DNA of 52,615 nt from positions 1-52,615 of the IMG/VR virus record IMGVR_UViG_3300045790_003108; one strand, given 5' to 3'. Below are positions 1 to 52,615 of this stretch, in pieces; the first letter of the stretch is position 1, and every line of letters starts with the position of its first letter. The position numbers and the translations under genes are program-made. The DNA comes from a virus. The notes under the pieces were generated by a model. That model did no database searches. It was not told the DNA's origin and was given only the letters and a program-made list of their open reading frames with translations.

Positions 1-396
1 TTGGAAGTATCATTACAGTTTAGCGCATCACTTGAAGCCGGGATAAAAAAACTCGGCAAAGATGTAGAGCCCTTAAAAAAAGATCTTAAGACTTATTTCA
101 CCACGCAAGAGAAGCCCCATTACATAGGTAAAGACGCTCCTTTTTTGCGGCCTGATAATATTCAAGATTCTGAGGTGCATCACCTTCATATATATATTGA
201 AGGTGTATCTTGCCCTGATAAGTGGGAAAGAAATAAAACCTCTGATTCCTATATCGTCTATACCTATGGATATATGAATGAAGAGGCGCATTACGTATTT
301 GCCGTAATCCATGATAATGCACATGAGAAGTGCAAAGATTATGGCTATATGCGGGGCCTCAAGCAAACTGCTGATGACTTTAGAAATAGAAATTAA
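1..396 (+). CDS. YafO-family mRNA interferase toxin (orphan)
   Basis: 131 aa from a TTG start. The protein follows the E. coli YafO pattern along its whole length: a short N-terminal strand and helix, a central G-(K/R)-D-A motif (GKDAPF, about residues 43-48), an HLHI strand, a Y.YGY..EEAHYVFAVI core near residues 88-104, and a C-terminal basic helix ending DDFRNRN. Known YafO proteins are ribosome-dependent mRNA endonucleases neutralised by YafN. The start is chosen because joining the window ends places AGGTGA seven bases upstream and a TGA just before it. No YafN-like gene is adjacent; the preceding gene is a 50-aa zinc-finger protein. It is the last gene before a terminator. Family call good, activity inferred. 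Confidence 0.68.
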   Translation: MEVSLQFSASLEAGIKKLGKDVEPLKKDLKTYFTTQEKPHYIGKDAPFLRPDNIQDSEVHHLHIYIEGVSCPDKWERNKTSDSYIVYTYGYMNEEAHYVFAVIHDNAHEKCKDYGYMRGLKQTADDFRNRN

Positions 397-405
397 TTAT
401 CTGAT

Positions 406-429
406 AGCCCTCTTAATTGAGGGCTTTTT
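406..429 (+). terminator. Rho-independent terminator ending the rightward operon
   Basis: Perfect 7-bp stem AGCCCTC / GAGGGCT with loop TTAATT, followed by five T on the plus strand. It lies ten bases after the YafO-like gene and just before the stop of the convergent antirepressor gene, so it closes the rightward operon. Confidence 0.88.
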
Positions 430-434
430 GTTTG

Positions 435-1175
435 TTATGCTGCGTGCTCTTGATCTCGCTCGCTCCAAAGTTTTTGAAGTTTGGCGAGCCCTTTACCTGT
501 AACCAATGCTGTTACTGATTGCTTAAGGCCGTGATCTGGGTGCTCCCAACTTCCAAGCTTAACATCAAGATAGCCTGATTCAATTTTTGTTTGGTAAGGC
601 TCGTTACGTCTTGAGATCCAGCCTATTTGACGAAGGAACGCAAATAACCGCCGCTGGCCTGTACCAATAATCTTTGCGGCTTGCGCTACACTTATTGCAT
701 CAGGCGCGACTTCAACTTGCTTGGCAAAGGCTACGCGCGGCGCTTCCTCTTCAAGTTGATGCTCAAGGTTTAGTTTTTCTTGCTCAAGCCTAATACGATC
801 CTCTTCTGATTGCATGGCCAATTGCAAAATATCCATGCGCGATAAGTTTTCCGCTGGGGCTTGGCGCTTGTTCAGTTCGTCACGCATTTCAAAGAATGCT
901 TTGATCAGTGCTTTTTTGAATGCTTTAACCGTATCGTTGTTTCTAAAGTACGTTAATAGCAAGGCTGATTGCTGCTCGTTGAGCATTGCGTACTCTGTGG
1001 GTCGGCCTCCAGTACTTTCGGATTTGAAATCCAGAAGTCCAAACTCCTCCAAATCACTGGCATTCTGGCGGATCACTTTTATTACCGATGCATGCGGGTT
1101 GCCCACACCTTCAGCAATTGCCAGCGAGGTGGTGATCGGGCAATTTGTATCATTTAAGGTCACGATGCTATTCAT
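435..1175 (-). CDS. Phage antirepressor, Rha N-terminal plus KilAC (ANT) C-terminal domain
   Basis: 246 aa. Residues about 10-105 match the phage Rha regulatory domain (LAIAEGVGNPHASVIKVIR, then GRPTEYAMLNEQQSALLLTY and a helix ending AFFEMRDEL). A coiled linker follows at about 110-150. The C-terminal KilAC/ANT domain covers about 155-240 (SVAQAAKIIGTGQRRLFAFL, then GWISR and VTGKGLAKLQKLW). Proteins of this type bind and inactivate phage repressors or act in lytic regulation. Its start overlaps the stop of the 90-aa gene by ATGA. It lies downstream of two Arc-type genes, the same logic as P22 immI, where Arc and Mnt control Ant. The target repressor is unknown. Confidence 0.85.
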   Translation of the reverse strand: MNSIVTLNDTNCPITTSLAIAEGVGNPHASVIKVIRQNASDLEEFGLLDFKSESTGGRPTEYAMLNEQQSALLLTYFRNNDTVKAFKKALIKAFFEMRDELNKRQAPAENLSRMDILQLAMQSEEDRIRLEQEKLNLEHQLEEEAPRVAFAKQVEVAPDAISVAQAAKIIGTGQRRLFAFLRQIGWISRRNEPYQTKIESGYLDVKLGSWEHPDHGLKQSVTALVTGKGLAKLQKLWSERDQEHAA

Positions 1176-1444
1176 TGGATGGTCCTCATTGGCATTGATT
1201 CAAATTTAGCTTGCATATCGCCAAGGCGATCAGATACGAGCCACAATAAATTAGAAATCTGCTCTTTGGGGAACCCTTCTATATTGTCGTTACCCACCAT
1301 AAAATCTACGAGCGATTTAGTTTGTGTTAACAGGCGATCAAAGTCATCGTAACTGTCATTGGTCATGATATTTGCTTTTACGAGTAATTCACTTTCATTT
1401 ACTCGTTGTGCGTTATCTTGGTTTTTTGCTATATTAGAAGGCAT
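1172..1444 (-). CDS. Unrecognised 90-aa protein of the antirepressor operon
   Basis: 90 aa, acidic and helical, with no motif I recognise. It starts at an ATG with a strong site (AAGGGG, five bases spacing) and its stop overlaps the antirepressor start by four bases, so the two are probably translationally coupled. It lies between the Arc-type repressor genes and the antirepressor and should be controlled by the same promoter. It may modulate the antirepressor, but nothing in the sequence shows this. Confidence 0.7.
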   Translation of the reverse strand: MPSNIAKNQDNAQRVNESELLVKANIMTNDSYDDFDRLLTQTKSLVDFMVGNDNIEGFPKEQISNLLWLVSDRLGDMQAKFESMPMRTIQ

Positions 1445-1482
1445 AAAGACCCCTTATCAATGCTTCGATGGTGTTTTTATTG

Positions 1483-1508
1483 GCCTCAACTGTTCCAGCA
1501 GTTGGGGC
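1483..1508. other. Hairpin in the antirepressor leader
   Basis: Inverted repeat GCCTCAACTG / CAGTTGGGGC (10 bp, one G-T or A-C position) with loop TTCCAG, in the gap between the second Arc-type gene and the 90-aa gene. There is no clear T tract after it on the minus strand and only a weak one on the plus strand. It could be an attenuator or an RNA target ahead of ant, by analogy with RNA control in P22 and P1 immI, but this is inference. Confidence 0.4.
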
Positions 1509-1518
1509 TTTCATTTTA

Positions 1519-1668
1519 TTAAGCTGCTTTAGTTTGCTCATTCATTTTTTCCTTTATCCACATTTCAATTTGCTTGTTCTGTGAACGGCCATTTTCTTCT
1601 GCCTGCTCTTTTACAAACTCTCGCATTTCTTCTGGTATTCTTAAGCCAAATATTTTGTGCTTTCTCAT
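1519..1668 (-). CDS. Arc-type ribbon-helix-helix repressor (49 aa)
   Basis: A very short gene. The protein starts MRKHKIFGLRIPEEMREF and continues VKEQAEENGRSQNKQIEMWI. This is the Arc fold: a DNA-contacting beta strand (KIFGLRIP), helix A, an ENGRS turn identical to P22 Arc, and helix B. The ATG at 1668 is preferred because AAGGA lies about seven bases upstream; the ATG at 1674 is too close to it. It follows the other Arc-type gene by 12 bases and probably represses the antirepressor operon at the operator near 1873-1898. Confidence 0.78.
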   Translation of the reverse strand: MRKHKIFGLRIPEEMREFVKEQAEENGRSQNKQIEMWIKEKMNEQTKAA

Positions 1669-1680
1669 AACCATTTCCTT

Positions 1681-1854
1681 TTAAGTTGTTTGCATTTCTA
1701 ACGCGCCACTTTGATCAGCGCGAAGTCTTTTTTCATCAAGTATAAAATTAAGCTCAGCTGTTAGTGATCGGCGGTTCTTTTTAGCCTGCTCTTTTAGCCA
1801 TTCGTGATTAGCTGGTACGACTCTGAACTTAACTTGTGCATATTGGTGTGACAT
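1681..1854 (-). CDS. Arc-type ribbon-helix-helix repressor (57 aa)
   Basis: 57 aa starting MSHQYAQVKFRVVPANHEWL, with AGGAG eight bases upstream of the ATG; the longer open frame upstream has no such site. Strand QVKFRVVP, helix NHEWLKEQAKKN, turn RRSL and helix TAELNFILDEK make an Arc/MetJ-type dimer fold. It is the first gene after the divergent promoter and operator, so it is probably autoregulatory and controls the antirepressor. It is not closely similar to the neighbouring 49-aa protein, so the two may act on different sites, as Arc and Mnt do in P22. Confidence 0.75.
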   Translation of the reverse strand: MSHQYAQVKFRVVPANHEWLKEQAKKNRRSLTAELNFILDEKRLRADQSGALEMQTT

Positions 1855-1872
1855 ATTATTGCTCCTAAAGCT

Positions 1873-1898
1873 CAATAGAACCACAACTGGTTCTATTG
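1873..1898. promoter_or_regulatory. Mnt/Arc-like operator: perfect 11-bp inverted repeat
   Basis: CAATAGAACCA, spacer CAAC, TGGTTCTATTG, a perfect palindrome. A further half site, GTGGTTCTAT, lies at 1915-1924, overlapping the -35 of the leftward promoter. Layout and size resemble the P22 Mnt operator (TAGGTCCAC-type palindrome). Three ribbon-helix-helix proteins are encoded within 100-350 bp, so one or more is the likely ligand. The palindrome is seen directly; the ligand is inferred. Confidence 0.72.
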
Positions 1899-1899
1899 A

Positions 1900-1929
1900 A
1901 TAATGGCACCGCATGTGGTTCTATGTCAA
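1900..1929 (-). promoter_or_regulatory. Leftward promoter of the Arc/antirepressor operon
   Basis: On the minus strand TTGACA (1929-1924), 18-base spacer, CATTAT (1905-1900). The -35 is consensus and the -10 matches at four of six positions. The inferred start falls inside the palindromic operator at 1873-1898, so repressor binding would block it. Confidence 0.6.
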
Positions 1930-1954
1930 CAACATTAAAAAAATATTTTTATTC

Positions 1955-2716
1955 ATGTCTAATAAACTTCAATTTAAAGTGCGTCTTGATGAGTCGCTTC
2001 ATGGAAAAATAAAGTCAGCAGCAGACAAAAATAACCTAAGCGTAAATGCAGAAATAGTAACTCGCTTAGAGAGCTCTCTTTATGAAGAAAATGAGGGGAA
2101 ATTAAAAAATGACGAGATAACAAGGCGCTTGAGAGAGTACCAGAAAGAGCATCTCAGCAATGCGGCCACACTATTTGAATCTCTTACAGAGCAAGTTAAG
2201 GGGGTTGTAAGTAAGGCCGACACCTTACATCGTTATATTCTGCCTGCAATTTGCCAATCAAACTGCATACGTCTTAATAGCTCAGGCACTACACATGGAG
2301 ATAAAGAGCAGCTAGCCGCTTTTGCTTTGTCATTTCCGCAATCTAAACGTGTATTAATTGCCGCTCGTGACGGAAGCTCAAACTACAGTGCATTAACCAC
2401 CGTCTTTTATTCCGAAAACTATACTTTCATTGCCGATCAAACGGTGATGACTGTTGAGCGCTTACCAAGGGAGCGAGAGGTTTTAGATTTATTCCAAGAT
2501 CTCGATGAGCGCGGCCTCCTTGATGTTGCTGAATTTGCCACCACTCGCGTTAAGCAAACTCGCGATTTACCCGTAGAGCAAGCGATTGAAGAATTAGAGC
2601 AATACGAAACCAAACCAGTACGCTCTAATATTTACGAATTTTTAAGCCTGTTTTTCCGTGAGCCAGAGCAGGTTAAGCCTGATTGGTTTGTTGACGAATG
2701 GAAAAAATTGAATTAA
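1955..2716 (+). CDS. Arc-like ribbon-helix-helix protein with long C-terminal extension
   Basis: 253 aa from the ATG at 1955. Residues 1-45 are an Arc-like domain (strand LQFKVRLD, helix ESLHGKIKSAADKNN, turn LSVN, helix AEIVTRLESSL). A coiled-coil-like helix follows at about 55-100, then a mixed alpha/beta region I do not recognise and an acidic C terminus. No good Shine-Dalgarno is seen before this ATG (an A/T tract lies there), so the start rests on domain fit. It is divergent from the Arc-type genes and shares their control region. It may be a second repressor of the lipoprotein genes downstream. Function otherwise unknown. Confidence 0.7.
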   Translation: MSNKLQFKVRLDESLHGKIKSAADKNNLSVNAEIVTRLESSLYEENEGKLKNDEITRRLREYQKEHLSNAATLFESLTEQVKGVVSKADTLHRYILPAICQSNCIRLNSSGTTHGDKEQLAAFALSFPQSKRVLIAARDGSSNYSALTTVFYSENYTFIADQTVMTVERLPREREVLDLFQDLDERGLLDVAEFATTRVKQTRDLPVEQAIEELEQYETKPVRSNIYEFLSLFFREPEQVKPDWFVDEWKKLN

Positions 2717-2745
2717 ACATTTTGTTAAATAGATGGAGTTTTAAT

Positions 2746-3069
2746 ATGAAGTTATACGTTATTTTTATATCATTATTACTGGTCAGTTGCGTAACGATTC
2801 CAGAGCTAAAGCCTGATGCCAATAATGTTAAAGTCGTATCATCTGACAAAGCAATAGCCAACTGCAAATCGTTAGGGCTGGTTTATGGTTACAGCGATAA
2901 TGGCTTTGAAGGTTATGCTGGCGCTGGAGGGGTAAGTCAACGCCACTCCGTTTACGACGCGCAAAACAAAGCTTATGATTTAGGGGCCGATACAATATTA
3001 ATTATAAATACAAATCCTAGGACTGGCGGCACAGACACTGCAGCAGAAGCATTTAAATGCAATTCTTGA
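2746..3069 (+). CDS. DUF4156-type lipoprotein
   Basis: 107 aa. The signal peptide MKLYVIFISLLLVSC ends in a lipobox (LVSC), predicting a lipid-anchored envelope protein. The rest follows the DUF4156 pattern: short strands, a central Gly-rich segment (GYAGAGGVSQ), a helix with N-K-A and GADTILI, and a second Cys near the end. The start is set by GGAG eight bases upstream of the ATG; the frame extends further upstream without a site. It pairs with the next lipoprotein gene. A related lipoprotein lies at 44443. Probably a lysogenic-conversion gene; function unknown. Confidence 0.75.
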   Translation: MKLYVIFISLLLVSCVTIPELKPDANNVKVVSSDKAIANCKSLGLVYGYSDNGFEGYAGAGGVSQRHSVYDAQNKAYDLGADTILIINTNPRTGGTDTAAEAFKCNS

Positions 3070-3938: not shown

Positions 3939-3984
3939 CCCCCTCATCCCAATCTAACCGCTAATCATTTTTGATTATGCGGTT
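3924..3984. terminator. Two hairpins at the convergent gene ends
   Basis: GAGGGGCT / AGCCCCCTC (3924-3945, one bulge) and AACCGCTAATCA / TGATTATGCGGTT (3956-3984, loop TTTT, one bulge) sit between the stop of the PDZ lipoprotein and the end of the polyvalent protein gene. Neither has a long T tract, so they are probable but weak terminators for the two converging transcripts. Confidence 0.42.
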
Positions 3985-6900
3985 AAATCGGCTTCTTACC
4001 TCCCTTGCTGATTCATTATCCATTATTAACTGCGCTCGCTTCACTGCGCTTTCAAATGAGCGGTCCGATAGATTTACTGGCGGCACTTGCTCACGCAGTA
4101 AAAAGCCAACATTGCGCTTACTAATCCCCGCTAGCAATAGTATTTGCATCACTTGCCTGCGACTTGCTCCCCCTGTTTGAGCTGCTTTGATTAAGCGTGA
4201 CATTTGCTTAAACGCTTGCTCTTGCTTTGTTTTAGCTCGTGCTTTGGCTGCGCTTATTTCATCATCAGATACTTTGTTAGGGTCCCTCAGTACGCCGCTT
4301 AGCTCTTTTCTGGCTTCGGCTATGGCACTGTTAAAGTCAAACGTGCGGTAGTATAAGCCGACCTTTGGATCAAAGGTTGAGCTTCGAAATCCTGCAAGCG
4401 CCAGCATTTCATCCGACAGACTATAAGGCTTACCCGTTGAGCGCTTAACATCTGTTGCAGCCATGCCAATACGCCACGCATTATTTACTGCTCCAGGCGC
4501 TAAACCTAATGCTAAATGCCCAGCAATATCAGCGCTTTTGCGTATAGCCGTATCGTTTTCTTTATATACCTGTCCGCCGCTTTGCTTTTTGTTGCTGATC
4601 ACCTCAAGTATTTTGCCTGTACTAATATCAGTGCCTAAAAATGGCGATACCATATCGCTAAGTGATGAGGCAATAGCCTCGTTAACAGGTTGGTCGCGCA
4701 TCATGGCCTCTATTGGGCGTTTCCAGTAGGCGTATGGATCTAAAAACGACATATCAAAGTAACGTAAATTATTGTCGCTATCTCGGCCAGCATAAATAAA
4801 GGTTGAGTTTTTTTGCCATGGCGGAGCTAAATCTCTTAGCGCCTCTTCCTCATCATCGGTCACGCCAAACATGGCTGCGCTCAATGCTGATAGTGCAAAC
4901 ATACCGCCACTTGCTAAGCTCATGCCTACAATTCGTTTTGCGCCCATTTCGCGTATTTTTGGGTTGTCTGATTTTATTTCACTGGCTGCAAGCTTCATCA
5001 TGTTGCCTGTCGTTCTAATAACTTCAGCAGGAAACGATACAAACGTGCCAGCCAGTGGGAACCGTGATAACCACGCCCCCGCTTTTCCTACTCGGCTATA
5101 TGTTGGGTAGGTGTTTTGTATCCTCTCAGCTGCTAGCGATTCTGCCTCGCTCTCTTTCATGCCTGTACGGACGAGTGCGGCTTTTTCATTTTCAAAGCCT
5201 ACTATCTTCCAAAAGTCATCGCCAAAGCGATAAAAGCCTGTTGCTTTAGCAGTTAGCCAGCGCAAGTTTTCAAAGGCGGCTCCGCTTCTGCCTTCAAGCA
5301 TTTGGTTTATTTTGCCATCAGTCATCACCTTGACTATATCGCCTGCATTAGCTGAGTCATAAAGCACGCCTAATTTAATTAAGCGTTTTATGTAATCAGA
5401 TTCGCCATCGGTTACTTTTTCTTTAACTTGTGCGTTAAATGCTGCAACGGCTTGCTTCATGTATTTTTGATTAAAGTGTCCATTGGCAACGGTGAAAAAG
5501 TACGCCGACATAACATTACGCATGGCTGTTGTGGGTGACAGCACAGTTTTGCCGAATTTAATAAAGCCGTTTATTTGTATGGCCTTGTCTAGCCACCCCT
5601 CACCACGCTCACCGCCCATCGCATCTTCAAACGCTTCTTTTATTTCTGGCGTTGTCCACATGCCATTTAGTGGTGCGTATACTTCTGATGCTTCACCGGC
5701 GAGCTGCACTGTGGCATTAGGTGGTCGGCTGTCTTTTTCAAAAATGAAATTGTTAATGCCCATATCGCGTATTGTGCTTAGGAGTTTATCATTAGCGATC
5801 ATAGCTGACATTTTTGATACAGACTTAGCGTAGTTAATGCGTGGGTCTGCGTATTCACCTAGCAAAGCTCTGATCTCAGGTGATATGTCTTTGCGTGGTA
5901 TTAGTGTAGATAAGTCTTTAGAGCCTAGCTTACTTTCAGCAATAAAAGATCCCAAGCTGTCGTAAGCGGTGCCTGTTTTAACCATTTCGTTCATAGTTAC
6001 TTGGGCTTTTTGCTGTGCTTCTTTTGCTGTTGCGCCGTCTTTTTCATATTGCTGCATTAAGTATGCACGGGCATCATCAATTACCTTAGTCGGTATTTTT
6101 TCAAACCATTTAGGATCGTCAAATGCTTTATAGCTGCGGTTTAAATATTTGCCCATGTTACCTAGCATTTTTTCAAGGCGAGCCGACTCTTTAGGGTCAA
6201 TATCGCCATCCTCTGCAAATCGCTGATGAAGCTTGTTATTGACGCTTGCTACGTAGTCTTTTGTTAGCCCATCGATATGCTCGCGCATCAGTATGAGCGT
6301 GTCTCGCTCATTTTGATTAAGCGCCTTTCCATCATTTTCACCCGTTAAAAACTCGTGGTATTTGGACCATTGCTCATCGGTTAATCTGTCAGGGTTTATT
6401 TTAGCGCTTTTCATAGCTGAATTTAGCTTCCCTACCAGCATAGATACATCAAACTCATGTACAGCTACATCGCGATCACGGCCTCTCTTAGCTTGCTGGA
6501 CGGTTTCAGGTAAGTTTCCACCTGGCATAAACCAGCGTGAAAGCTGGCGTTTTATTTTATCTCCTGCGGTTTTGTCGGTTTCGCGTAGCTGTGCATTTAA
6601 TGCGTCCCATTCTGGCACGCTTGATTTTTCAAAGCGGTCGCCGTTAAGCGCTTTTTTTACTGATTCCGCTATTTTGTTTGGTGCTTTGCTAGTGTCGTTA
6701 TTGGCTGTGCGGCTGAATTTTTTATCGGATTGACTATAAGCCATTTCGTTTTTACTAGTGGCTACTGGCTCTCGCTGCGCTTTAAAGCCTTTTACAATAC
6801 TTTGTAGCATGTCCCGCATCGCTGTTAATTCATCATCCTCACGGTAAGCTACACCAAGCTTATCAAGCTGTGCACGTATAAAGCGCTTTAGCGCATTCCA

Positions 6901-9900
6901 CCAATACTTAACCTCACCTTTGCTTGGTTCGTTTTCTACAAAGCGTGCAAAAATTTCTTCTGCTTTAACGTCCTCGCTTGCATCCCAATAATCTTTGTTC
7001 GCATCTTTCCAGTATTTCTCAAACGCTTTACGGCCTTTGGTCTTTTTAATACGATCAATAAATTCTTGCTTAGCTTCTTTACCAATAACAGTATCAAGGC
7101 CACCATGAGCAATAGTTTCATGTGCTAAAGTCTGTTTAAGATCATCTATACTATCCATGTTTTCAGCAATGATATAAACAGTATTGGACATTTCGCTATA
7201 AGCGCCTTTGACTGTTGCGCCGTCCAAGCTCATGCGCCATAGCTTTTCAGCGGTGGCGGTATCTTCTAGGATATTAACAGTTATGCCGTTAGCGCCTTTC
7301 AGTGACGTTATGAAATCATCTGCTATCGCTTGCGCTTGCTTGGCGTTTACGCCATTAGCTTTTTTACTGGGCTTTGATTTTGAAAATAATCGTATCCCCT
7401 CACTGGTGTTTTCACTTTCAATTGTGTCGAACAAGGTTTGGTAAGCAGGATTTATTTTTTCTTGCTCAGCTTTGTTTGGGTATGGATAGGTACTATTTGA
7501 TTCTAAACCTAGCGATTCCGCAGCAGTCCACGCTTCATCAAGCACTACATTTGCAAGGTAATCGTTAGTTATGCCTTGCTGCTTTAATTTATCTATAATG
7601 TAAGTTTCAAATGATCGCGCTGTCATTTCGATAGTCGTTGCCCAATAAGCTTTAGAGCGCCTGGTATCTAATTGCTTTGAGCGCTCAGGCAATCCGCTTT
7701 GCACGATGGCATTTCTTACATGTTTAAAAGCGTTTGCCATTTCAGGGCGAATTTCATCTGTGGATAGCGTGTATGGCGACTCAGTTATAAACTCTGTGTT
7801 AGGCCTTTGCTTGCCAAAGTAGTTATCCAGTGCGTGCCACCATTCGTGCGCTAGAGAACCTGCACCGGCTTTTTTAGTAAGATTAATAACAACGCTGTTT
7901 GGTTCGTAATGTGCAGCTGCAGGATTTTTGCCACCCTTACCTCGCGCACCAAATGCGAGCCCTAGCTTACCGTTTAAACTTAATGCTTTTGGTGGTAAGT
8001 CTAATGCTTCAGCTAAATCCATTAGTCCATCGTAAGCTTGGTTTAGATTCTTTTGGCGCTTAGCTTGTTCTACCCAATTGCCAAACTCTACACCTCTAAA
8101 GCCAAACGTTTCACCAAACGTATCAGGCGTTACATTTTCAGCATAGCGTTCTGGTCCTATGCGTTCAGCATTAACCGGCTTACGCATACTAGGTGTTTCT
8201 TTTATTTTCTGTAGCGTTTGCTCGACTTCTTCGCGATTATTTTTAAGGTGATCTCTGGCTGCACCTAAATCATCAAATGACTTTATTTTTAAAACACCGC
8301 CTGCACCTTTCCAGCCAAGGTAAATATCTTTAGTGTATCGATCACGGTAAACACTTATTTTGCTTTTCTTGCCACTTGTCGCATTAGCGTTGTCAGCCTG
8401 TTCGGCTTTGATTACTTTAGTTAGCAGTGCCTGTACGTTACTTAACGTTTCGCTAGCGCCATCATAAACAGGACGCCCATTTCGCTCTATAAAGTAAAAC
8501 ACCTTACTAGGCGAGTATGTTTTACCGCCAAATATAGAAAAACTACCAGAAGAAATTCGGTAATCTGCAACGTTTTTTAAGGTGTCAATATCAGCCTTTG
8601 CAATAGAAGGTATAGCGTCAACAACAGCGGCTAGCTTTGAGCTATGATTACGCATTCTTTGCATAACGCTTGCTACGTTACGATCACCACTCATTAAGTC
8701 TGCGGCAAATGACTTTAACGTATTAACTTTTTCAGCCCATCTTGCAACCTTACGAGCAACTCGTGGCTTTGATGGTATTTCACTTCTCATTGCAGCAATT
8801 AGCGCTGCTGACTCCGCATTAGCTCCTTTTTCTACAAGCTCTTTGTAGTTAGGCTCAGGCCATGCTTTGCTTAATGGTAACTCAGTCGTGCTTTTCTGAT
8901 CTTGTATTGCCTCACTAAAACCACCCCATGCATCTTTACGTGCGCCGCCTAGCTTTTCGCCAAAGTCATCAATGCTTTCTTGTAGGCTAGCTTGTTCTTT
9001 CTTGTTTGATGGTTGCTTGACTGTTGCTTGACTATTTTCCGCTGGGATCGTGTCGCTATTAAGTTGCCCTGGCCTCTTTGATTCAGGCAAAGAAAAACCG
9101 CTTTTAGGCGGTTCTGTTTTTTTTATTTTCTGATTTGAACTATCTGGGATTTCCGGATCGTTCGTTTTCTCTGTAGATTTTGGCTCTCCTACTGTTTCTG
9201 TACTAGGTGCGGACTTTTCATCTTTAGGTGCGGATATTGAATCGCGTATTTGTTGAGCTGGTTTTTCTGCTTGAAACGTATCATCAATGCCAAATTCTTT
9301 ACGCAGTTCACTGTACGCTTGGCGATTAATGCTTTCTGGCGTATCGCTATTAAACTCTTGATACGTTTCAAACGACGATTCAGCTAGGGCTTTATCAATG
9401 GCTGGTTCATAACCTTCTTCTATTTTAGCCATGGCAACATCAAAGCCTGGCGAGCCCTTTTTTAGCCCCTGTTTCTTAGCTTCACTTTGCAGCCACTTGC
9501 GCTTAGTGGTTTTTAGTATTGGCGGGAGCTCTGCTGATTGTTCAGAGTTTACCGATTCTTGTTCAGTTAATTTACCATTATCGGCAGTTTCAATGCCTTT
9601 TCGTTCAATTAATTTACCATTATCACTATTTAATTTACCAAGTGCGGCGGCTTCTTCATTGCCAGTGGCAGTTAATTTACCAGTGCCGCCCTGCGTTTCA
9701 GTGCTTGGCATTTCTTTTGCCAATGGCACTAGTTGTTCAATTGGCGCATTTAAGCGGATCACTTTTACTGGCTCGCCTTTTTCGCGGGCGGCTAACCATT
9801 GGTGATGGCCGTCTAATACATAGTTGTCATTCGATACCAGTATAGAGCGGTTGCCGCCTTCAAACTCTTTCGCTTGCTTTACTTTTGCTGGCGAAAATTC

Positions 9901-12120
9901 TTGCTGTGTCGGCTTTAATGAACTTGCGGGCACTTCATCTTTTTCACTGACTATGTCACGCGCTTTCATAAAGCTAACCATGGCACCACGGTTTTCAGCT
10001 TTGATTTGCGGCATTTCTGATCGTGGTATATTTTTGGTGCCGCTTTCTTGTGTAAAAGACTGCCATTCATCATTTAGCATTTTGCCTGCTATTTCAGGTG
10101 CTTGTTCTATGTCAGCGACACCAGTGTCGTCAACATCATTGCTCACTAGCTCTTGCTGGGCAGGCTGTGGCTTACTGGCATTGTCCGTACTTATATCCGG
10201 AGCTGTATTAGGTGCGGTACTTGCATCGCTTTTGACGGTCCAGCCAAAGCCATTATCAAAACTAACTGCCTTAGTTTTTTTACCTGCTCTGCGTGCTGCG
10301 CGTGCTTCTTTGCTTAATAAGGCATCACGCTTGGTTTTAAACGGTTCGCCACTTTTAGCAACGTTTACACCGCTTTCATTACCTGCAAAAACAATATCTT
10401 TTTGAGGTAATAAATTTTGCGAGTCTTTACCGGCTTGTTTGATCTGCTCTGCTGCTCGCTGTTTTGGTCGGCCATCTTCACCAAAAATAATATCCTTTTG
10501 ATCAATACCTTTAGGCTGTGACTCAAGATCAGCTTGTGCCTGCTCGCGCATTTCACGGTTTTGGGTTTGCTCTGTCGTTGGGAGCTTGCCTTGCTCTGGC
10601 ACTACTTGGCCGTCTATTGGTGCATTGTCTATCCCTTGCGCGTTTTGAGCGTCTGGGCCTAATAACTCGCCTTCGTGTTGGTATTTAATAGGACTAAAGC
10701 GATCCTCTGGCGTTGGTGACTTGTCAAACGCTGCCGCTTTTACTCGCTCGTCTACAGTAGGTGCGTTGTTGCCTGCTTCTAAGTCTCTTAGCGACTGTTG
10801 CGCTGGGCTTGTAAGCATATCACCATACTGGCCGGCTGCTTTTGCTGTCTGGTCAAATCCTGCTTGTCTTGCGGCTGTTGGCGCATCGTAATCAATATCA
10901 TCATTTTTAAATACAGGCGTTTCGGCATCTTCTGGTGTTGTTTGCGATTGCTCTGTTTCTTGTGATCCCGGCTGATTTTGTTGGGCTGCGGCTGTAAACA
11001 AAGGATCGTCAATGCCGAATTTTTCTTTCATTGTACGGGCGACTATTGCGGACGCTTCAACCTCTGTAAAGCCTTGCTTAATTGCTGAGTCGTATTGCTG
11101 CTTTTTAACTGTTTCAATGGCTTCTTCTGGCGTTGCGCCTGCTTCTACAAGCTGATCGGCACCGTTTTTAACTGCTTCTGCTGATTTTTGCTGATAACCC
11201 ATTACTTTTTGCGCCGTTTCTGAGCCCGTGCGCATCACACCACCAACCGTAAGGCCGCCTACGAATGCTTCGTCTAGCCCTTCAAATTCATCAATGCTTT
11301 TGCCTGCACCCCATTGCGCTAAGGCTTCTTGCCCTGTTTCGGTTAATCCCTCGCCTACGGCACCTTTAAATAATCGCTTTACAAAGCTTGGATCGCGTAC
11401 AGCGTCAACAAGCTCACCCTTGCCCATGCGCTTAGCTGTTTCGACTACGCCATCTTTTAAAATGTCCTTACCAAGCTGGCCCATGCTAACTTTGATACCT
11501 AAGCGCTCAAGCAGCATTTGCCCTGAACCTGACGCGACAGCTCTCGCTGCATTCTTTTCATCTTCTGGCTGTTTCTCGTAAGCTTCTTGGGATAAGCCTC
11601 CGGCAAGCGTAGCTGCGCCAATTGGGTTTGCCGCTGCGGCCATATAAGGTAATGAGCCCGCAACCAACTCACCTGCGTAATTACCAAAATCTTTTAATCC
11701 ACCAATGTCTTTGTATGATTTAACTGTTGGTTCGTATGCCTTTTGTTCTTCAACATTTCGTTCAATGCCTTTTTCAGCCCACTGGTCAACTTCTGCACCT
11801 GGTCTAAGCTTATCAGCAAGCCAGCTATCAAAAGGTCCAGGCTTTAGTACGTTAAGCTCTCGCTTTGTAGGCTCTGGCTTCTCACCAATAACATCTGTTA
11901 ACCCCTCAGCCGCGCGATAACCTATCTCTTGCAACTTATCAACGCCTGCTCCTAGCGCTGCGGACATGCCTGATTCTGGCTCCGACACAGCTTCGGTCTT
12001 TATTTCGCTATCACCAATAAGTCCGCGCTTAACAGCTTCATCATAAGCCTCTTTTTGAGGTCCTTTTAATAAGCCGCGCTTGTCAGCCTCTTGCAGTGCA
12101 AGTAATCTTTCATTGTTCAT
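3961..12120 (-). CDS. Giant polyvalent protein, probable DNA-ejection/internal virion protein
   Basis: 2719 aa. Seen in order: a charged N terminus; an Ala/Gly-rich hydrophobic region about 140-330; long disordered acidic segments; a ParB-like motif (VLDGHHQWLAA) near 770; a conserved LPD1-like block (FGFRGVEFGNWV, then GARGKGG, INLTKKAGAGSLAHEWWH) with a zinc-peptidase HEWWH near 1425; a second HExxxH (AHETIAHGG) near 1666; and an LPD38-like region about 2200-2590. The family (large polyvalent proteins) is known for phage proteins delivered into the host with the DNA. It is the last late gene, after smaller ejection proteins, which fits the end of a podovirus ejection module. Individual enzyme activities are inferred. 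Confidence 0.85.
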   Translation of the reverse strand: MNNERLLALQEADKRGLLKGPQKEAYDEAVKRGLIGDSEIKTEAVSEPESGMSAALGAGVDKLQEIGYRAAEGLTDVIGEKPEPTKRELNVLKPGPFDSWLADKLRPGAEVDQWAEKGIERNVEEQKAYEPTVKSYKDIGGLKDFGNYAGELVAGSLPYMAAAANPIGAATLAGGLSQEAYEKQPEDEKNAARAVASGSGQMLLERLGIKVSMGQLGKDILKDGVVETAKRMGKGELVDAVRDPSFVKRLFKGAVGEGLTETGQEALAQWGAGKSIDEFEGLDEAFVGGLTVGGVMRTGSETAQKVMGYQQKSAEAVKNGADQLVEAGATPEEAIETVKKQQYDSAIKQGFTEVEASAIVARTMKEKFGIDDPLFTAAAQQNQPGSQETEQSQTTPEDAETPVFKNDDIDYDAPTAARQAGFDQTAKAAGQYGDMLTSPAQQSLRDLEAGNNAPTVDERVKAAAFDKSPTPEDRFSPIKYQHEGELLGPDAQNAQGIDNAPIDGQVVPEQGKLPTTEQTQNREMREQAQADLESQPKGIDQKDIIFGEDGRPKQRAAEQIKQAGKDSQNLLPQKDIVFAGNESGVNVAKSGEPFKTKRDALLSKEARAARRAGKKTKAVSFDNGFGWTVKSDASTAPNTAPDISTDNASKPQPAQQELVSNDVDDTGVADIEQAPEIAGKMLNDEWQSFTQESGTKNIPRSEMPQIKAENRGAMVSFMKARDIVSEKDEVPASSLKPTQQEFSPAKVKQAKEFEGGNRSILVSNDNYVLDGHHQWLAAREKGEPVKVIRLNAPIEQLVPLAKEMPSTETQGGTGKLTATGNEEAAALGKLNSDNGKLIERKGIETADNGKLTEQESVNSEQSAELPPILKTTKRKWLQSEAKKQGLKKGSPGFDVAMAKIEEGYEPAIDKALAESSFETYQEFNSDTPESINRQAYSELRKEFGIDDTFQAEKPAQQIRDSISAPKDEKSAPSTETVGEPKSTEKTNDPEIPDSSNQKIKKTEPPKSGFSLPESKRPGQLNSDTIPAENSQATVKQPSNKKEQASLQESIDDFGEKLGGARKDAWGGFSEAIQDQKSTTELPLSKAWPEPNYKELVEKGANAESAALIAAMRSEIPSKPRVARKVARWAEKVNTLKSFAADLMSGDRNVASVMQRMRNHSSKLAAVVDAIPSIAKADIDTLKNVADYRISSGSFSIFGGKTYSPSKVFYFIERNGRPVYDGASETLSNVQALLTKVIKAEQADNANATSGKKSKISVYRDRYTKDIYLGWKGAGGVLKIKSFDDLGAARDHLKNNREEVEQTLQKIKETPSMRKPVNAERIGPERYAENVTPDTFGETFGFRGVEFGNWVEQAKRQKNLNQAYDGLMDLAEALDLPPKALSLNGKLGLAFGARGKGGKNPAAAHYEPNSVVINLTKKAGAGSLAHEWWHALDNYFGKQRPNTEFITESPYTLSTDEIRPEMANAFKHVRNAIVQSGLPERSKQLDTRRSKAYWATTIEMTARSFETYIIDKLKQQGITNDYLANVVLDEAWTAAESLGLESNSTYPYPNKAEQEKINPAYQTLFDTIESENTSEGIRLFSKSKPSKKANGVNAKQAQAIADDFITSLKGANGITVNILEDTATAEKLWRMSLDGATVKGAYSEMSNTVYIIAENMDSIDDLKQTLAHETIAHGGLDTVIGKEAKQEFIDRIKKTKGRKAFEKYWKDANKDYWDASEDVKAEEIFARFVENEPSKGEVKYWWNALKRFIRAQLDKLGVAYREDDELTAMRDMLQSIVKGFKAQREPVATSKNEMAYSQSDKKFSRTANNDTSKAPNKIAESVKKALNGDRFEKSSVPEWDALNAQLRETDKTAGDKIKRQLSRWFMPGGNLPETVQQAKRGRDRDVAVHEFDVSMLVGKLNSAMKSAKINPDRLTDEQWSKYHEFLTGENDGKALNQNERDTLILMREHIDGLTKDYVASVNNKLHQRFAEDGDIDPKESARLEKMLGNMGKYLNRSYKAFDDPKWFEKIPTKVIDDARAYLMQQYEKDGATAKEAQQKAQVTMNEMVKTGTAYDSLGSFIAESKLGSKDLSTLIPRKDISPEIRALLGEYADPRINYAKSVSKMSAMIANDKLLSTIRDMGINNFIFEKDSRPPNATVQLAGEASEVYAPLNGMWTTPEIKEAFEDAMGGERGEGWLDKAIQINGFIKFGKTVLSPTTAMRNVMSAYFFTVANGHFNQKYMKQAVAAFNAQVKEKVTDGESDYIKRLIKLGVLYDSANAGDIVKVMTDGKINQMLEGRSGAAFENLRWLTAKATGFYRFGDDFWKIVGFENEKAALVRTGMKESEAESLAAERIQNTYPTYSRVGKAGAWLSRFPLAGTFVSFPAEVIRTTGNMMKLAASEIKSDNPKIREMGAKRIVGMSLASGGMFALSALSAAMFGVTDDEEEALRDLAPPWQKNSTFIYAGRDSDNNLRYFDMSFLDPYAYWKRPIEAMMRDQPVNEAIASSLSDMVSPFLGTDISTGKILEVISNKKQSGGQVYKENDTAIRKSADIAGHLALGLAPGAVNNAWRIGMAATDVKRSTGKPYSLSDEMLALAGFRSSTFDPKVGLYYRTFDFNSAIAEARKELSGVLRDPNKVSDDEISAAKARAKTKQEQAFKQMSRLIKAAQTGGASRRQVMQILLLAGISKRNVGFLLREQVPPVNLSDRSFESAVKRAQLIMDNESAREVRSRFNRIIKND

Positions 12121-52104: not shown

Positions 52105-52614
52105 GTGATTTATGTGTGACTGTAATATTCCAAGTGCATTCAGTGAAAAAATGCGCAAAGCAAGAAAGCCTCACAATTGCTGTGAGTGTTTGGATAAAAT
52201 AAATATTGGTGAAAATTATCAGTATTGTAGCGGGGTATGGGATGGCGAGCCAAATAGTTATAAAACTTGTATTTCATGCTTGAAATTAAGAGAAAACTAC
52301 GAATCTGAAACAGGTGAATGTGCGGCGTTCGGGCATCTAAGAGAAAGCATAAGCAATGCTTTTTATCTTAATTACGGCGTTAAAGAGTTTATCAACGATT
52401 ATCCCGAATATAGCGACGAACTTAAAAAGCTATTTTCGATAAAAAATTAGCATAGGTGATTTATGAAAACTGAAACGTGCGCTTATATCCACTGCGAAAA
52501 GGAAGCAGATTTTATTGATGCGATGGGTGACTTTGTTTGTGAGGAATGTATGGAAAGGGAGGTTCAACATGGCGGTGATTCTTATGATGACTTTCAGTCA
52601 ATAGGTGATTTATG
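52102..52614 (+). repeat. Three copies of a stop/RBS/start cassette TAGGTGATTTATG
   Basis: TAGGTGATTTATG occurs at 52102-52114, 52453-52465 and 52602-52614, each holding a GGTGA site; the first two run into an ATG start codon. The third copy ends on the final bases of the window and supplies the site of the gene that starts at position 1 if the ends are joined. Possibly a relic of gene duplication. Confidence 0.75.
52112..52450 (+). CDS. Cys-rich zinc-binding phage protein (112 aa)
   Basis: 112 aa. Opens MCDCNIPSAFSEKMRKARKP then HNCCECLDKINIGENYQYCS and GVWDGEPNSYKTCISC. The C-x-C and two C-x-x-C pairs form probable zinc ribbons; this MCDC...ARKPH.C.EC arrangement is a known phage and bacterial small family without assigned function. 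Starts from the TAGGTGATTT cassette. Confidence 0.65.
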   Translation: MCDCNIPSAFSEKMRKARKPHNCCECLDKINIGENYQYCSGVWDGEPNSYKTCISCLKLRENYESETGECAAFGHLRESISNAFYLNYGVKEFINDYPEYSDELKKLFSIKN

Positions 52615-52615
52615 A
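52463..52615 (+). CDS. 50-aa zinc-finger protein ending at the window edge
   Basis: 50 aa: MKTETCAYIHCEKEADFIDA, then FVCEECMEREVQHGGDSYDD and a short end SIGDL. Two Cys pairs (C-x4-C and C-x-x-C) suggest a single zinc finger. Its TGA stop is the last codon of the window. The start site is the TAGGTGATTT cassette at 52453. Confidence 0.6.
   Translation: MKTETCAYIHCEKEADFIDAMGDFVCEECMEREVQHGGDSYDDFQSIGDL

What the first reader, a model, noticed from the sequence alone, without database searches (positions are those of the whole stretch)
1..396. Orphan YafO-like toxin as last gene of the rightward operon
YafO is normally paired with YafN. Here no antitoxin is seen and the gene has a TTG start that needs the joined ends for its ribosome-binding site. 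In an early operon, a ribosome-dependent RNase could shut down host translation or act as an anti-phage or anti-defence device. The antitoxin could be host-coded or the neighbouring 50-aa zinc-finger protein.
Basis: partly seen in the sequence, partly recalled or inferred. Interest (0 to 1): 0.5.

Follow-up and report, generated by a model that had tools for sequence, protein, structure and literature searches.

The report
YafO toxin at a prophage edge
A virus gene that looked like a lone bacterial toxin is most likely the second half of a two-gene toxin and antidote-like pair, whose first half was cut off where the virus record was trimmed.

Summary
The gene is real. Window 1-396 matches the YafO toxin family (PF13957, 71.7 bits, cut-off 25), keeps its most conserved residues and models as a RelE-type toxin fold at moderate confidence. 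Against its nearest relative, 20 of 21 differing codons are synonymous. 'Orphan' and 'last gene of the rightward operon' are edge artefacts. The window begins at a start codon, ends at a stop codon, and has no terminal repeat and no integrase. In a relative, the operon continues past the window's right end with another gene. The nearest provirus, whose YafO is 99% identical, has a 179-aa ORF 14 nt upstream. Of 68 viral loci found, 8 records start exactly at yafO, like the window; the other 60 carry an upstream ORF, whole or in part. Phage versions of this ORF are an unannotated family, not YafN. Best reading: a mobile two-gene module at the prophage end, a YafO toxin with a probable non-YafN antitoxin. 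Neutralisation is untested, and for the window's own lineage homology of the upstream ORF to that family is only suggestive.

The parts
1..396 (+). YafO-family toxin gene, 131 aa, TTG start; first base of the record is its start codon
406..425 (+). terminator-like stem, then a T-run, right after yafO; in L001 one stem pair changes from T-A to G-C and stays paired, and this block of similarity to G001 stops at window 432
   Evidence: the scan alone is no better than shuffles: 1 found, mean 1.3
52463..52615 (+).
52603..52615 (+). AGGTGATTTATGA: probable ribosome-binding site and ATG of the next, cut-off gene, overlapping the TGA of the 50-aa ORF; in L101 the same sequence leads into a 96-aa gene
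435..1175 (-). Rha/KilAC-type antirepressor, convergent neighbour of yafO; no match in G001; another ORF (antirepressor-like by my reading, no family search) stands at that place in G410

Best explanation
The gene encodes a YafO-family, RelE-fold toxin, presumably an mRNA-cleaving enzyme that stops translation. It is the downstream gene of a mobile two-gene module, X-yafO, at one end of a linear prophage, reading inward from the attachment-site side and probably closed by its own terminator. The integrase is at the other end. X is a protein of 150-213 aa that is not YafN by family search, helical in the one model made, and most likely the antitoxin; in this window X would lie just outside the record. 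The module is probably kept for prophage stability or for shutting down cells attacked by other phages. Shown: YafO family, predicted fold (moderate), purifying selection, the edge artefact, and tight X-yafO linkage in many contexts. Inferred: that the window's own prophage carries X, that X neutralises YafO, the RNA target, and the benefit.
For: PF13957 71.7 bits against cut-off 25. The seven alignment columns kept in at least 43 of 44 rows (G43, H61, H63, Y87, A107, H108, A124) are all kept in the window. Of the 50 listed structural neighbours of the window model, 49 are titled as toxins or toxin-antitoxin complexes (HigB, YafQ, RelE, YoeB, ParE, MqsR and others) and one as a conserved hypothetical protein; best Z 7.6. 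PF13957 is listed as a BECR-fold family in PMC11980606 (passages). Record edge. L001 has a 179-aa ORF 14 nt upstream of a 99% identical YafO. Of 68 viral loci, 8 records begin exactly at the yafO start codon; of the other 60, 57 have an ORF of 178-213 aa ending between 8 nt past and 16 nt before the yafO start, and the remaining 3 (L035, L046, L074) hold X wholly or in part. All 6 annotated phage records read and all 3 plasmids read have such an ORF of 150-205 aa. The pair sits in 17 upstream contexts (49 loci) and 24 downstream contexts (63 loci). X and YafO distances correlate, r 0.90 over 36 distinct pairs, 0 of 2000 permutations as high. In E. coli, 49 of 50 records with a match hold at least 80% of the two-gene query; the one partial match lies at a record's first base. 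A read-through fusion of X and YafO from L020 models with pLDDT 81.9 and pTM 0.79, higher than I would expect if the two domains were placed at random (inference).
Against: No toxicity or neutralisation data. The window itself does not contain X. The L001 ORF has no Pfam match, only a PHROG match at E 0.21, no useful BLAST match to X of L017 and only a weak profile match to the X family (score 20.8, E 0.015). The window's YafO does not group with the main phage YafOs: its nearest supported neighbour after L001 is the Saccharobesus plasmid YafO, whose 150-aa upstream ORF also matches the X family only weakly. Many X proteins have an apolar, signal-peptide-like N-terminus (25 of 37 reach the 1.8 level, 10 of 20 after dropping near-copies, against 7 of all 52 proteins of phage Y3), odd for an antitoxin of a cytoplasmic enzyme. 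L074 has a frameshifted X beside an intact yafO. X-YafO co-variation is also expected from simple joint inheritance. In plasmids 131 records match the YafO but only 43 match the L017 X; I read three and did not check the rest. The fusion model forces proximity, and neither coordinates nor error matrix were available.
Confidence: 0.67

Rival explanations
1. The record is a circular phage genome, and yafO is a true orphan at the end of the early operon, acting on host translation early in infection.
For: The rightward operon and yafO point the same way, and a plausible ribosome-binding site (AGGTGATTTATGA) stands before the TTG if the ends are joined. In circularised form the prophage ends would meet near the attachment site.
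Against: No terminal repeat; ends exactly at a start and a stop codon; the ATG at the join is out of frame with yafO; L101 shows the continuation in a relative; G001 and G410 have an integrase at the right end of their records and the window none; L001 has a different upstream gene.
Confidence: 0.04
2. The upstream ORF X is not an antitoxin but an envelope or exported protein of a lysogeny accessory unit, for example superinfection exclusion, co-transcribed with a YafO-like effector whose control is elsewhere.
For: Signal-peptide-like N-terminus in many X proteins; no convincing match to a known antitoxin family or DNA-binding domain; L074 keeps yafO beside a broken X.
Against: Some X and X-position proteins (L022, L078, pJN2-26, Saccharobesus) have no strongly apolar N-terminus, so export is not the shared feature; linkage is to YafO, across unrelated contexts.
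Confidence: 0.2
3. The window's gene is a decayed or repurposed YafO without RNase activity.
For: 5 of the 23 conserved columns that fall on window residues carry another residue (L29, I42, I85, H97, D105), and one more conserved column is a gap; it falls well below the NCBIfam YafO equivalog cut-off (52 against 153).
Against: Strong purifying selection (20 of 21 codon changes synonymous); the most invariant residues are kept. HK639-type YafO of L017 also falls below that cut-off (71.3).
Confidence: 0.08

Closest known systems
E. coli YafN-YafO type II toxin-antitoxin module
   Same: YafO-family toxin; elsewhere encoded downstream of and close to its partner; predicted RelE-type fold. YafO cleaves translated mRNA in vivo and YafN restores growth (PMC2814082, passages read), though its ribosome dependence is questioned (PMC8546651, passages read).
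   Different: The partner in relatives is not a short Phd/YefM-type antitoxin but a 150-213 aa protein without a Pfam or NCBIfam family; identity of the window's YafO to other phage YafOs is about 22-31%, L001 apart; carried on prophages and plasmids.
phrog_1651 with phrog_8416 / phrog_22162 (phage protein families of unknown function)
   Same: The window's YafO matches phrog_1651; X of 4 of the 5 phages scanned matches phrog_8416 or phrog_22162.
   Different: These entries give no function; the fifth, L001's upstream ORF, matches neither.
'YafM antitoxin' / YafO of Escherichia phage PhiR40_1 (GenBank PV340560)
   Same: Same two-gene arrangement; the depositors already call the upstream gene an antitoxin.
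   Different: An annotation label only; the one paper naming the phage (PMC13190303, passages) does not mention YafO or YafM. In the 20 E. coli rows listed the X copies are called 'hypothetical protein'.
Unnamed novel YafO partners predicted by SLING in E. coli (PMC10790755, passages read)
   Same: That survey lists 13 partner clusters for YafO_toxin, with a 'known' proportion of 0.08.
   Different: The passages read do not describe these partners; I did not check whether X is among them.

Membership tests
YafO toxin family (PF13957) | profile score above the gathering cut-off | tested here: met
   71.7 bits against 25, residues 31-129 on profile 2-101 of 101
YafO toxin family (PF13957) | most invariant residues retained | tested here: met
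   18 of the 23 columns kept in at least 85% of rows that fall on window residues match (a 24th is a gap in the window), and 7 of 7 kept in at least 43 of 44 rows (the 44 rows include the window and near-copies). Which are catalytic is not known to me.
YafO toxin family (PF13957) | RelE/BECR-type fold | tested here: met
   Model pLDDT 64.8; 49 of 50 listed rows are titled toxins or toxin-antitoxin complexes, best Z 7.6, rmsd 2.8, 98 aligned. Moderate only: Z below 8, best Foldseek E 0.24.
YafO equivalog NF007377 (E. coli-type YafO) | score above curated cut-off 153 | tested here: not met
   52 bits
YafO toxin family (PF13957) | mRNA cleavage and growth arrest | not testable with these tools
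   needs expression
YafN-YafO module | upstream YafN-like (Phd/YefM) antitoxin | tested here: not met
   In L001 the upstream ORF is 179 aa with no Pfam match. In cells, 4 of 8 upstream ORFs scanned match PF02604 at E 0.01 or better, 2 of them above the curated cut-off. The window's own upstream DNA is not held, so this rests on the relative.
type II toxin-antitoxin module | two small co-directional adjacent genes | tested here: met
   In relative L001, gap 14 nt; in 57 viral loci from 8 nt overlap to 16 nt gap. Not visible in the window itself.
type II toxin-antitoxin module | first protein neutralises the second | not testable with these tools
   needs co-expression
type II toxin-antitoxin module | antitoxin has a DNA-binding domain for autoregulation | tested here: inconclusive
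   No such Pfam match in five X proteins; NCBIfam matches of 24 X proteins are weak (best E 0.0084; SoxR at 0.026 in two); the X part of the one model, from L020, is nearly all helical
X family (phrog_8416 / phrog_22162) | profile match of the L001 upstream ORF | tested here: inconclusive
   No match to these PHROGs. Profile-profile score 20.8, above 100 of 100 shuffles (max 20.34) and the highest of 111 phage ORFs, a set that includes the ORF itself (next 18.06).

The most novel reading that the evidence does not exclude
Phage and plasmid YafO toxins form a distinct toxin-antitoxin class in which the antitoxin is a helical protein with an export-like or membrane-associating N-terminus. It would hold an RNase toxin in check at the envelope and release it when the envelope is disturbed, for instance by another phage injecting DNA.
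Probability: 0.1. Interest if true: 0.75.

Novelty: new variant of a known kind. Interest (0 to 1): 0.4.

Why it matters
Papers report YafO on prophages or plasmids as a lone or incomplete toxin gene (PMC10449497 and PMC8151138), or list it with no antitoxin named in the passages I saw (PMC12066637) (passages read). For the two prophages of PMC10449497, D14L and D14C, the records show an unnamed gene 8 nt upstream. If X is the antitoxin, a recurring 'orphan toxin' becomes a complete module with an undescribed antitoxin family that one co-expression experiment can test. The case also warns that virus records trimmed at gene edges can create orphans.

Tried and rejected
Circular genome with joined ends: rejected (one search is weak, as near records may be left out of the collection). 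The 50-aa zinc-finger-like ORF as antitoxin: rejected on position and on G001; G410 cannot decide it, as that record is itself trimmed. Known family for X: in five X proteins no Pfam match better than E 0.09, in 24 no NCBIfam match better than 0.0084, in five no PADLOC match better than 0.02, and PDB sequence matches no better than 0.0083, to unrelated helical proteins. Fold of X: only generic helical bundles (best Z 11.1, which the tool warns is common for such bundles). A clean split of the YafO tree into X-paired and YafN-paired clades was not found (X label needs 6 changes, shuffled mean 6.6), so partner exchange is possible. Relatives of L001's X: none found beyond itself; BLAST against the Saccharobesus ORF gave E 1.1. 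L001 1-3900 has no near match in plasmids. X of L017 finds only HK639 among phages (2 records), so X changes fast. Papers on the pair: the searches (open-access library only, lists capped) gave no description of X in what I read; one paper pairs a prophage yafO with a ydaS-like gene instead (PMC9836087, passage). RNA families in 1-3000 and tRNAs in the window: none. Cellular survey: 5 of 369 and 6 of 42 genomes have PF13957, one genome (G286) in both. In the nine cellular loci whose upstream ORF I read (L086-L090, L094-L097) it is 59-106 aa; L098, L099 and L100 were not resolved. Of 16 phage records, I opened seven: six read, one without annotation not read further. First control for the apolar N-terminus used only 39 of 52 Y3 proteins and had left out the holin and another membrane protein; repeated with all 52 it gives 7, not 3, over the line.

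Full report
Observation. The window's first 396 bases are one TTG-started ORF of 131 aa. It matches PF13957 (YafO_toxin) with 71.7 bits against a cut-off of 25 and phrog_1651, but reaches only 52 bits against the 153-bit cut-off of NCBI's YafO equivalog. Its closest relative, in provirus IMGVR_UViG_2654587552_000001 (L001/G001), is 94% identical in DNA over window 1-432 and 99% in protein. Of 21 codons that differ, 20 are synonymous, so the gene is maintained by selection. A terminator-like hairpin follows at 406-425; the scan alone is no better than shuffles, but in L001 one stem pair is changed on both sides and still pairs.

The window looks like a linear piece. It starts exactly on the yafO start codon and ends exactly on a TGA. 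There is no terminal repeat and no integrase. The 36-base join is found in no viral contig, though the window's own record may be left out of that collection. The last bases, AGGTGATTTATGA, hold the start of a next gene: in relative L101 the 50-aa gene is followed through the same ATGA by a 96-aa gene, two more ORFs and a convergent integrase at the record's end. G001 likewise continues about 2.1 kb beyond its match to window 52114, and its integrase fills the last 1.2 kb. So yafO is not the last gene of the rightward operon; it sits at the other end of the prophage.

The 'orphan' status is an edge effect. In L001 a 179-aa ORF ends 14 nt before the TTG. A scan of viral contigs with a YafO alignment returned 68 loci. 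Eight of these records begin exactly at the yafO start codon, as the window does. Of the other 60, 57 have an ORF of 178-213 aa that ends between 8 nt inside yafO and 16 nt before it. The remaining three hold X in part (L035, cut by the locus edge), broken by a frameshift (L074), or intact beside a yafO whose start my script did not place (L046). Many loci are near-copies: the 57 give 36 distinct pairs. Six annotated phage records and three plasmids that I read all show the same arrangement, with ORFs of 150-205 aa. I opened only part of the hits: seven of 16 phage records (one without annotation) and three of the 131 plasmid records; 43 plasmid records match the L017 X. In E. coli, 49 of 5426 genomes hold a match, and 49 of 50 matching records hold at least 80% of the two-gene query. 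By contrast, cellular YafO loci have short upstream ORFs of 59-106 aa in the nine loci read. Of eight such ORFs scanned, four match Phd/YefM at E 0.01 or better, two of them above the curated cut-off.

What X is. X of four of the five phages scanned falls in phrog_8416 or phrog_22162, both of unknown function; L001's does not. Those tested have no convincing Pfam, NCBIfam or PADLOC family. A read-through fusion of X and YafO from L020, with an alignment of 40 rows, models with pLDDT 81.9 and pTM 0.79; its X part is nearly all helical. I have neither coordinates nor an error matrix, so the interface was not seen, and fusion forces nearness. X and YafO keep together in 17 upstream DNA contexts (49 loci) and 24 downstream contexts (63 loci), and their distances correlate (r 0.90), as expected for partners but also for simple joint inheritance. 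Many X proteins have an apolar, signal-like N-terminus: 25 of 37 reach a fixed threshold, or 10 of 20 after dropping near-copies, against 7 of all 52 proteins of phage Y3 (the 3 of 39 came from an incomplete control). Several lack it. I cannot reconcile this with a simple cytoplasmic antitoxin.

Limits for the window itself. The L001 upstream ORF aligns only weakly with the X family: profile score 20.8, above all 100 shuffles (maximum 20.34) and the highest of 111 phage ORFs, a set that contains the ORF itself (next 18.06). The YafO tree joins the window and L001 with a Saccharobesus plasmid YafO, among cellular YafOs, on long branches, and does not separate X-paired from YafN-paired YafOs cleanly. 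So in this lineage the partner could be another, fast-changing protein in the same position.

Mechanism. E. coli YafO cleaves translated mRNA and is countered by YafN (PMC2814082, passages), with its ribosome dependence questioned (PMC8546651, passages). PF13957 is classed with the BECR-fold toxins (PMC11980606, passages). The window model agrees: of 50 listed structural neighbours, 49 are titled toxins or toxin-antitoxin complexes, best Z 7.6, at moderate model confidence. I therefore read the module as an RNase toxin with an upstream antidote near the prophage's attachment site. Its use in prophage maintenance or defence against other phages is inference. The 50-aa ORF is not a good antitoxin candidate: it lies at the far end of the linear prophage, and G001 has yafO without a match to it. 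G410, which has the 50-aa gene and no match to window 1-1168, does not decide the matter, because its record is trimmed too.

Novelty. Toxin family and gene order are known. PhiR40_1's depositors already label the upstream gene an antitoxin, and an E. coli survey lists mostly unknown partners for YafO (PMC10790755, passages). What I did not find described, in the open-access papers I could search, is the X family as the regular partner of phage and plasmid YafO. I score it as a new variant of a known kind.

Noticed in passing
window 435-2716: Exchangeable cassette beside yafO: Rha/KilAC antirepressor, two small Arc/RHH-like ORFs and a larger Arc-like ORF. G001 lacks it, so the giant gene follows yafO directly; G410 has a different ORF (antirepressor-like by my reading) at its edge.
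   Followed up: partly
window 3961-12120: Giant 2719-aa ORF on the minus strand with DNA similarity to phage vB_Pun_Y3, in the part of that genome that holds a 'DdrB-like ParB' giant protein and an 'ADP-ribosyltransferase'.
   Followed up: no
L074:2288-2859: X gene broken by a frameshift beside an intact yafO, while L075 has the intact pair: sequencing error or a natural X-minus case.
   Followed up: partly
L108 (Klebsiella plasmid p397-1): X-yafO pair flanked on both sides by insertion-sequence transposases.
   Followed up: no
L040, L041, L045, L054, L055, L056, L059, L076: Eight other provirus records start exactly at the yafO start codon: a repeated trimming artefact.
   Followed up: yes
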